A DNA stretch of 38,131 nucleotides from Planctomycetota bacterium (GTDB taxonomy: Bacteria; Planctomycetota; Phycisphaerae; SM23-33), in NCBI GenBank assembly GCA_024275995.1, contig JAJRYB010000054.1, positions 1 to 38,131 of the forward strand, in the 5' to 3' direction. Both the position numbers and the translations under genes were made by a program. Shown piece after piece: positions 19,747 through 21,537 of this stretch (position 1 is its first letter; each line of letters begins with the position of its first letter). The notes below the pieces were generated by a model, which was given only the letters and a program-made list of their open reading frames with translations, was not told where the DNA came from and searched no databases.

Positions 19747-20760
19747 ATGTCCGACAAGATGTCTGACAAAAAATCCGCACACGTGCTGGTTGTCGATGAC
19801 GAACCTTACATTCGCGAGTTGCTCTGCGACGCGCTGAACCGCACGGGTGTCAAGGTGACGGCGGCAGCCAGCGGTAAGGAGGCAGCCGATCTCGCCAGCG
19901 TGAACAAGCCCGATCTTCTGATAACCGACCTGCGCCTGGCGGACTGCGACGGAACGGAAGTGGTGGACACGCTTCGCCGCATCGCGGGAAATGATATACC
20001 CACGGTCGTTATCACCGGTCAGAGCGACTCGGAAACGCTCACCAACGCCAGCCGGTGCCGACCGATCGAGTTGATGACCAAGCCCCTGAATATCGAGCGC
20101 CTCCAGGCTACGATCCGCGAGGAGCTTGCCCGGCGCAGCGAGACCGATCGCCTTCGCAGCCACGCCAAACGCCTGCGACATGTCGCCCGCAAGATCAATC
20201 GCCAGCGCAAGAACATACACAACGAACTCAACACGCGGTGCAAAAACCTCGCCTCGGCGTACAGGACGCTGAGCGGGCAATTTGCGATACAGGAAATCGC
20301 CCTGGCGTTCCAGCGCGAGCTTCTCGCCGCACGCGAAGACGACGATGTGTTCCGATCGCTGTTCAGCCTGTTCGTGCACCAGTCCGGACCACTGTTCGGC
20401 GCGGCGATGGTCTGCGATGCCGAAGCTCAACTGAAGATCGTCGGACGATTCGGCGTTCCGAATCCCGATTCCCTGGCGTTCTGCGAGGCGATCTGCGAGC
20501 CGATCGTCAACGCAACGCTCGGAAATCCGCAGTGCCTGCTGATCGACGCCGGCGAGGAGGCGGAGGTGTTCTCGGAATCTATCCGGAAATACCTCGTCGG
20601 GCTGACAGTTCTGGGGATCCCGCTGATTCCCGCCCCGGGCGAAATGATCGGCCTGGTCGTGCTGTACCGCAAGGGCGAGCAGCCCTTCATCGACAGCGAC
20701 GTCGCCCTGGCGGAAATGATCGCCACGCCGACGGCGATAGCGGTGCGGCGAAACGACTGA
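19747..20760 (+). CDS. Response regulator with C-terminal GAF-like region
   Basis: HVLVVDDEPYIRELLCDAL...LLITDLRLADCDGTEV...MTKPLNIERL receiver; C-terminal IPAPGEMIGLVVLYRKGEQPFIDSDVALAEMIATPTAIAVRR. Confidence 0.85.
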   Translation: MSDKMSDKKSAHVLVVDDEPYIRELLCDALNRTGVKVTAAASGKEAADLASVNKPDLLITDLRLADCDGTEVVDTLRRIAGNDIPTVVITGQSDSETLTNASRCRPIELMTKPLNIERLQATIREELARRSETDRLRSHAKRLRHVARKINRQRKNIHNELNTRCKNLASAYRTLSGQFAIQEIALAFQRELLAAREDDDVFRSLFSLFVHQSGPLFGAAMVCDAEAQLKIVGRFGVPNPDSLAFCEAICEPIVNATLGNPQCLLIDAGEEAEVFSESIRKYLVGLTVLGIPLIPAPGEMIGLVVLYRKGEQPFIDSDVALAEMIATPTAIAVRRND

Positions 20761-20763
20761 CGC
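20704..20763 (+). repeat. 60-bp direct repeat, copy 1 (3' end of response regulator gene)
   Basis: gccctggcggaaatgatcgcc...cgaaacgactgacgc; 59/60 identical to 21478-21537. Confidence 0.97.
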
Positions 20764-20887
20764 GAGAGGCCTGCAAGGAGTGCCTTGGGAAAATTCGAAC
20801 TTCCCTTGGATTTCTCGCTGATGCGGGATATACTACACCTGTGATGATTACCCTGCCGTTCCTCCGGAGCGGTGGGCATATAACCCC

Positions 20888-20912
20888 CCGAGGGCTGCTT
20901 TGCAGCCCTCGG
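20888..20912 (+). other. Perfect palindromic hairpin in leader of NYN gene
   Basis: ccgagggctgc-ttt-gcagccctcgg, 11-bp perfect stem; followed by ttaatatt, a weak T tract, so attenuator or REP-like. Confidence 0.75.
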
Positions 20913-20945
20913 TTAATATTAGCTTGCAGAACCGGGGACTGGTGC

Positions 20946-21473
20946 ATGGAACGAGTCAGCATCTTCATCGACGGGAGTAACCTGTATCATGGTCTGAAGA
21001 CTTACCTCCGCCGGACCGATCTGGATTTTGCCCGCTTCATCGATTGGATGGTAAAAGATCGGAAACTCATCAGGACCTACTACTACAATGCTACGGTCTC
21101 GGCAAAGCATAATCAGCAACGGGCCAGGGACCAACAACGATTTTTTGCAGGATTACGTCGAATCCCCTGCTTTGACATCCGCCTGGGGCGGCTCGAACCG
21201 CGTGGTGAAACGTTTGTCGAAAAGGGCGTCGATGTTAACATCGCCGTGGACATGCTCTCCATGGCCATGAGGGATACTTACGATACGGCCATCCTGGTTT
21301 CAAGCGACGGTGACTTCGCAAAGGCCATCGAAGCTGTTCAGGAGACTGGAAAGCATGTCGAAGTCGCCTGCTTCCACAAGGCATATCACGTCAAGCAATC
21401 CGCCGACAGAATACTCGAACTCAACGAGAACTCGCTTAGCAAACTTTGGCGAACCATAAGCGGGGCCCCGTAA
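20946..21473 (+). CDS. NYN domain (LabA-like, PIN-fold) putative nuclease
   Basis: MERVSIFIDGSNLYHGL, KGVDVNIAVDMLSMAMRDTYDTAILVSSDGDFAKAIEAVQETGKHVEV. Confidence 0.9.
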   Translation: MERVSIFIDGSNLYHGLKTYLRRTDLDFARFIDWMVKDRKLIRTYYYNATVSAKHNQQRARDQQRFFAGLRRIPCFDIRLGRLEPRGETFVEKGVDVNIAVDMLSMAMRDTYDTAILVSSDGDFAKAIEAVQETGKHVEVACFHKAYHVKQSADRILELNENSLSKLWRTISGAP

Positions 21474-21477
21474 ACAT

Positions 21478-21537
21478 GCCCTGGCGGAAATGATCGCCAC
21501 GCCGACGGCGATAGCAGTGCGGCGAAACGACTGACGC
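21478..21537 (+). repeat. 60-bp direct repeat, copy 2 (duplicated 3' end of response regulator gene, 3' of NYN gene)
   Basis: 59/60 identity with 20704-20763 (single g/a difference in atagc[g/a]gtgc). Confidence 0.97.

What the first reader, a model, noticed from the sequence alone, without database searches (positions are those of the whole stretch)
20704..21537. NYN/LabA-like gene bracketed by a 60-bp duplication of its neighbour's 3' end, resembling a 774-bp integrated unit
The last 19 codons plus stop of the response regulator (ALAEMIATPTAIAVRRND*) and a few following bases recur after the NYN gene at 59/60 identity. The intact copy stays on the regulator gene, and the insert holds a leader with an 11-bp perfect hairpin and one NYN nuclease-like gene. 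Integrative elements that target gene 3' ends commonly regenerate the end by carrying an att-like copy. No integrase is present, so a trans-mobilised or recombination-generated cassette is possible.
Basis: partly seen in the sequence, partly recalled or inferred. Interest (0 to 1): 0.82.

Follow-up and report, generated by a model that had tools for sequence, protein, structure and literature searches.

The report
Mobile nuclease gene with hairpin RNA
A small mobile DNA unit carrying a predicted RNA-cutting enzyme and a previously uncatalogued small hairpin RNA sits behind a regulator gene whose end it duplicates; the same pair occurs in archaea, many bacteria and viral sequences and looks like a toxin held in check by an RNA, although that function has not been tested.

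Summary
In detail: the last 57 bp of the response-regulator gene plus 3 bp recur after the NYN gene at 59/60, 774 bp apart. The "leader hairpin" turned out to be the main find. It is the second hairpin of a conserved tandem-hairpin RNA (window 20842-20917), with strong covariation and no Rfam match, and it is linked to this NYN family. Three searches of 349, 58 and 399 genomes with the RNA model alone hit only NYN genes or NYN remnants. Most bacterial copies have their own sigma-70-like promoter. The RNA lies upstream of NYN, or downstream on the opposite strand, so it is not merely a leader. Only 1 of 39 genomes in the window's order has this NYN gene. In three archaea the ~690-bp unit is the only DNA the loci share. 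Gene-end copies bracket the unit at five different host genes. Most codon differences between copies are synonymous, so the copies come from diverged functional alleles, not from a decayed local duplication. Best reading: a horizontally moving, type III toxin-antitoxin-like module (NYN RNase plus hairpin RNA), integrated by recombination at a gene end that it carries. The RNA-NYN pair is well supported. Toxicity, RNA-protein contact and the integration enzymology are inferred.

The parts
19747..20760 (+). Host gene: response regulator receiver + GAF domain protein (337 aa), intact
   Evidence: Pfam Response_reg and GAF; homologues in 35/39 genomes of the order
20704..20763 (+). R1: gene 3' end copy in the intact regulator gene (last 18 sense codons and stop, plus 3 bp)
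20764..21477 (+). Inserted unit between the two gene-end copies (GC 0.529 against a window mean of 0.593)
20806..20834 (+). Promoter-like site of the ncRNA: TTGGAT - 17 nt - TATACT (8 of 12 consensus)
   Evidence: below the 9-of-12 threshold, position agrees with relatives
20842..20917 (+). Tandem-hairpin ncRNA, match to covariance model R1 (68 bits)
20851..20876 (+). Hairpin 1 of the ncRNA
   Evidence: alignment and consensus structure
20888..20912 (+). Hairpin 2: 11-bp perfect stem, triloop TTT, terminator-like
20946..21473 (+). NYN/LabA-like (DUF88) predicted RNase, 175 aa
   Evidence: Pfam; AlphaFold pLDDT 94.4; nearest solved fold 2QIP
21478..21537 (+). R2: second copy of the regulator 3' end, promoterless fragment
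21650..22777 (+). Next gene: radical SAM DNA modification/repair-like protein (TIGR03916), right neighbour, not part of the unit

Best explanation
The unit is a horizontally acquired two-component module: a predicted NYN-domain RNase and a small RNA made of tandem hairpins, ending in a terminator-like hairpin. Inferred function: the RNA binds and restrains the NYN RNase, as in type III toxin-antitoxin systems. Free NYN would cleave cellular or phage RNA when the RNA:protein balance is upset, which favours retention of the module and may give phage defence. Inferred integration: the module entered behind the regulator gene by recombination through a carried copy of that gene's 3' end. That left an intact gene with one copy (R1) and the displaced copy (R2) on the far side. 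Shown: the RNA, its structure, its linkage to NYN, the mobility of the unit, the repeated gene-end pattern. Not shown: toxicity, binding, an excised circle, the recombinase.
For: RNA: 15 of 19 pairs with compensatory changes; covariation score 0.625 against 0.226 in shuffles, 0/500, and at most 0.18 when slid. Linkage: single copy at the NYN locus in nearly all of 29 genomes or records. RNA-only searches gave 2/349, 6/58 and 3/399 hits; all new ones lie at an NYN gene or an NYN remnant. Independent transcript: 19 of 23 bacterial copies have a sigma-70-like promoter of at least 9/12, 19% in shuffles, in both layouts; the RNA is on the opposite strand downstream of NYN in about 8-10 loci. Antitoxin-like asymmetry: RNA kept while NYN is broken in L257 and L259. 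Mobility: sporadic distribution, discrete shared block in Methanophagales, copies in viral contigs. Gene-end repeats at RR, glnA, a desulforedoxin-like gene, an XRE gene and cimA; 22 of 29 differing codons synonymous where 23% is expected.
Against: Only about 5 of 28 tested module loci show a gene-end repeat. Control ORFs show direct repeats in 7 of 353 cases (mostly paralogues or dispersed repeats), and one of those (L018, leuD) is the same pattern with other cargo. No experiment shows toxicity or binding. The window has only two hairpins and a mediocre promoter (8/12). Many related NYN genes (Thermaceae, SAR202, Zixibacteria) have no clear model match. No recombinase lies in the unit. With one difference in 60, the window alone cannot distinguish a carried allele from a recent local duplication.
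Confidence: 0.55

Rival explanations
1. The hairpins are only a cis-acting leader (attenuator or autoregulatory cleavage site) of the NYN mRNA, with no trans-acting RNA.
For: In the window and about 20 relatives the hairpins lie just upstream of NYN on the same strand; the last hairpin is terminator-like.
Against: In L012, L014, L017, L018, L042, L044, L134, L172 the RNA is downstream on the opposite strand with its own promoter, where a 5' leader role is impossible. The RNA persists beside broken NYN in L257 and L259.
Confidence: 0.15
2. The 60-bp repeat is a local duplication or unusually long target-site duplication made at insertion, with no carried gene end.
For: The window copies are 59/60 identical, so nothing there requires a foreign allele.
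Against: In L004, L134, L014 and L018 the copies differ mostly at synonymous codons, including stop-for-stop TAA/TGA, so they descend from diverged functional genes. Repeats stop within 0-3 bp of the stop codon in four independent cases.
Confidence: 0.3
3. The unit is an internally deleted remnant of, or is trans-mobilised by, a larger integrative element with a tyrosine recombinase that attacks gene ends.
For: Gene-end att-like pattern at several genes; four phage-integrase-family genes elsewhere in the genome; serial cassettes at cimA in L014.
Against: The gene ends are different, unrelated sequences, unlike a fixed integrase specificity; no integrase, inverted repeat or core site is found in any unit.
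Confidence: 0.25
4. NYN and the RNA form an RNA-processing or RNA-directed ribonucleoprotein that is not a toxin-antitoxin pair.
For: A CRISPR-associated NYN RNase trims RNA in vitro (PMC11346440); the PADLOC candidate-defence model HEC-09 matches at 7e-23.
Against: No CRISPR or other effector gene was seen to recur beside the module in the loci looked at; the alignment shows no long variable guide-like segment.
Confidence: 0.3

Closest known systems
Type III toxin-antitoxin systems (ToxIN, CptIN, TenpIN)
   Same: Tandem RNA repeats, then a terminator-like hairpin, then an RNase gene; own promoter; carried by mobile DNA
   Different: Toxin is an NYN/PIN-like protein, not the ToxN fold; units are simple hairpins with no pseudoknot detected; the RNA is convergent downstream in about a quarter of loci; toxicity untested
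NYN/LabA/DUF88 proteins (2QIP VPA0982; CRISPR-associated NYN RNase of B. fragilis)
   Same: Same domain, conserved acidic residues, predicted RNase
   Different: No RNA partner of this kind found for them in the literature searched
Prophages and integrative elements in gene 3' ends (e.g. e14 in icd, from general knowledge)
   Same: Gene end regenerated by a carried copy with synonymous differences; displaced copy on the far side
   Different: Under 1 kb, no integrase, different gene ends in different hosts
AbiF-type RNA-regulated defence genes (PMC12373285, abstract only)
   Same: Phage-borne defence gene controlled through RNA
   Different: Different protein family and RNA (general knowledge; not compared here)

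Membership tests
[quoted passage not shown]
   Upstream layout met in the window and most loci; not in the convergent loci; the window has one hairpin before the terminator-like one
Type III toxin-antitoxin system | Toxin homologous to ToxN/CptN/TenpN | tested here: not met
   Protein is NYN; only solved fold match is 2QIP
Type III toxin-antitoxin system | Antitoxin RNA folds as a pseudoknot | tested here: inconclusive
   Consensus is two plain hairpins; pseudoknots were not searched for specifically
Type III toxin-antitoxin system | Toxin is toxic and neutralised by the RNA | not testable with these tools
   Needs expression tests
NYN/LabA-like (DUF88) family | NYN domain above Pfam cut-off | tested here: met
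   97 bits, cut-off 24.2
Integrative mobile element in a gene end | Gene end regenerated by a carried copy, displaced copy at the other side | tested here: inconclusive
   Arrangement met in window, L004, L005, L134; synonymous divergence supports a carried copy at L004, L134, L014, L018, but the window and L005 copies are too alike to tell
Integrative mobile element in a gene end | Encodes or is linked to a site-specific recombinase | tested here: not met
   No other gene in the unit; integrase-family genes only on other contigs
Integrative mobile element in a gene end | Excised circular form | not testable with these tools
   Needs PCR or long reads
Rfam RNA family | Match to a described family | tested here: not met
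   Nothing credible

The most novel reading that the evidence does not exclude
An undescribed family of RNA-protein toxin-antitoxin or defence modules, shared by bacteria, archaea and viral sequences, in which an NYN RNase is controlled by a tandem-hairpin RNA encoded upstream or convergently, and which moves as a cassette of under 1 kb between ends of conserved genes.
Probability: 0.5. Interest if true: 0.82.

Novelty: new variant of a known kind. Interest (0 to 1): 0.74.

Why it matters
NYN/LabA genes are very common and mostly without a known role. A specific, conserved RNA partner gives them a testable one and would add a new toxin fold to RNA-antitoxin systems, in archaea as well. The synonymous divergence between bracketing gene ends also points to a little-noticed way in which very small cassettes enter genomes at the ends of conserved genes.

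Tried and rejected
Simple chance repeat: rejected. Assembly overlap artefact: unlikely, since the copies differ inside the repeat and other loci are far more diverged. Dispersed genomic repeats: taken as the cause at L008 (same repeat around another ORF), L011 and L006 (palindromic), so these were not counted. L139, L032 and L066 control repeats: tandem paralogues or local duplication. Empty site by DNA alignment: relatives too diverged; congeneric glnA site for L004 gave no clear choice of resident copy. Pattern scan of viral contigs with the RNA linker/hairpin motif: chance hits only. Plasmid search: only distant NYN (30% identity); phage collection: none. Diversity-generating retroelement (template/variable repeat): considered because of the single A/G difference, dropped because other adenines are unchanged; reverse transcriptase genes were not searched.

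Full report
Observation. The repeat is real: 20704-20763 and 21478-21537, 59/60, spacing 774. R1 completes an intact response-regulator/GAF gene. R2 is a fragment behind the NYN gene (20946-21473). The single difference is synonymous. The insert is lower in GC (0.529 against a mean of 0.593, lowest 6% of windows), and the NYN gene's third positions are 0.63 GC against 0.78 and 0.76 in its neighbours.

Distribution. Among 39 genomes of the order only the window's genome has this NYN gene, while the regulator is present in 35. In 400 genomes of the class only 6, the window's included, have a relative. The closest solved structure is VPA0982 (2QIP), of unknown function; the model is confident (pLDDT 94.4).

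The leader is a conserved RNA. Aligning sequences beside related NYN genes showed the same element in bacteria, archaea and viral contigs: a linker AATTAACnCC and a hairpin, repeated two or three times at about 38-39 nt, the last an ~11-bp stem often followed by T-rich sequence. The consensus has 19 pairs, 15 with compensatory changes. Covariation is 0.625 against 0.226 in shuffles (0 of 500) and at most 0.18 for slid pairings. Rfam has no match. The window copy scores 68 bits.

Linkage to NYN. The model finds essentially one place per genome, at NYN, in 27 of 29 genomes or records (most extra weak rows are the reverse strand of the same hairpins, and two are weak matches elsewhere). Three searches used the RNA alone: 2 of 349 genomes of the phylum around L005 (Chloroflexota), 6 of 58 genomes of the class around L007 (Methanophagales), 3 of 399 genomes of the window's phylum. 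The six new loci were L172 and L257-L261. L172, L258 and L261 have intact NYN genes and L260 runs off the contig inside NYN. L257 (internal deletion) and L259 (truncated) keep the RNA beside a broken NYN. None of 163 kb of control loci matched, apart from the window itself. Some of the sequences found were in the model; L004, L007, L010, L014, L018, L025, L044, L137, L139 and the RNA-only loci were not.

Layout. In most loci the RNA is upstream on the NYN strand. In L012, L014, L017, L018, L042, L044, L134 and L172 it is downstream on the opposite strand (L130 and L132 probably too). In both layouts a sigma-70-like promoter precedes it: 19 of 23 bacterial copies reach 9 of 12 consensus bases, against 19% of shuffles; the window copy reaches 8. 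A convergent RNA with its own promoter cannot be a 5' leader, so I favour a trans-acting RNA. The upstream layout (promoter, RNA repeats, terminator-like hairpin, RNase gene) is the architecture used to define type III toxin-antitoxin loci (PMC5086642), but the protein family and the RNA fold differ. Loss of NYN with retention of the RNA is what a toxin-antitoxin pair would predict. These points are inference; nothing here shows toxicity or binding.

Mobility. L007, L008 and L011 (Methanophagales) share only a ~690-bp block from just upstream of the RNA to ~15 nt after the NYN stop, at 75-85% identity, with unrelated flanks. In the NYN tree RNA-linked members mix archaea, several bacterial phyla and viral contigs (many forks weakly supported). 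L134 lies between an XRE gene and further regulator-region genes of a viral contig.

Gene-end repeats. The pattern of the window recurs: L004, 3' end of glnA (35 of 35, ends at TAG); L005, a complete ~41-codon desulforedoxin-like gene (ends at TAG); L134, 3' end of an XRE gene (ends at the stop codon); L014, 5' end of cimA. L129 is the same contig as L004 and is counted once. With 700-bp flanks, 8 of 28 module loci score above the bulk of the null; I discount L006, L008 and L011 as palindromic or dispersed repeats, which leaves five. Seven of 353 control ORFs have such repeats, mostly paralogues or dispersed repeats. In L014 there are three cimA 5' ends, bracketing the NYN module and then an N6/N4 methylase and EVE-domain insert. 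In L018 a leuD 5' end brackets an alpha/beta hydrolase gene. So the mode of entry is not peculiar to NYN.

Origin of the copies. Over seven pairs of gene ends, 22 of 29 differing codons are synonymous, including a TAA/TGA stop pair, against 23% expected (binomial P about 3e-9; the two L014 pairs share a sequence, so this overstates independence). Copies of this kind descend from diverged working genes. That fits entry by recombination through a gene end carried by the cassette (site-specific or homologous), and speaks against a target-site duplication or local duplication at those loci. The carried copy need match only to the stop codon, which would account for where the repeats stop (inference). 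For the window itself, with one difference, both origins remain open. No recombinase lies in the unit; four integrase-family genes lie on other contigs.

Verdict. The more important discovery is the NYN-linked tandem-hairpin RNA. No paper describing it was found in the open library searched, which excludes most subscription journals and preprints.

Noticed in passing
L014:3916-7105: Three 5' ends of cimA bracket, in turn, the NYN-RNA module and an insert with an N6/N4 DNA methylase gene and an EVE-domain gene: apparent serial cassette entry at one gene start.
   Followed up: partly
L018:420-2462: In the leu operon a leuD 5' fragment and the intact leuD bracket an alpha/beta hydrolase gene; another unassigned 306-aa ORF (no Pfam match) precedes the fragment.
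   Followed up: partly
L257 and L259: Methanophagales loci with an intact hairpin RNA beside an internally deleted or truncated NYN gene (orphan RNA).
   Followed up: yes
L077 and L083, about 3904-3952: Weak, possibly diverged single-hairpin matches upstream of NYN in Thermus; these cultivable hosts could serve for tests.
   Followed up: no
window 10829-10984 and 11411-11440: Two tandem 74-nt repeats (GCAGGGATGAACTCAGATAAACGCAGATG...) with a nearby inverted 30-nt copy.
   Followed up: no
window 5846-5934 and 36597-36685: 89-nt direct repeat, 81% identical, 30.7 kb apart.
   Followed up: no
window 21650-23773: TIGR03916 radical SAM DNA modification/repair-like gene followed by a D12-class adenine methylase gene, next to the inserted unit; the radical SAM gene is in only 15 of 39 genomes of the order at the threshold used.
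   Followed up: no
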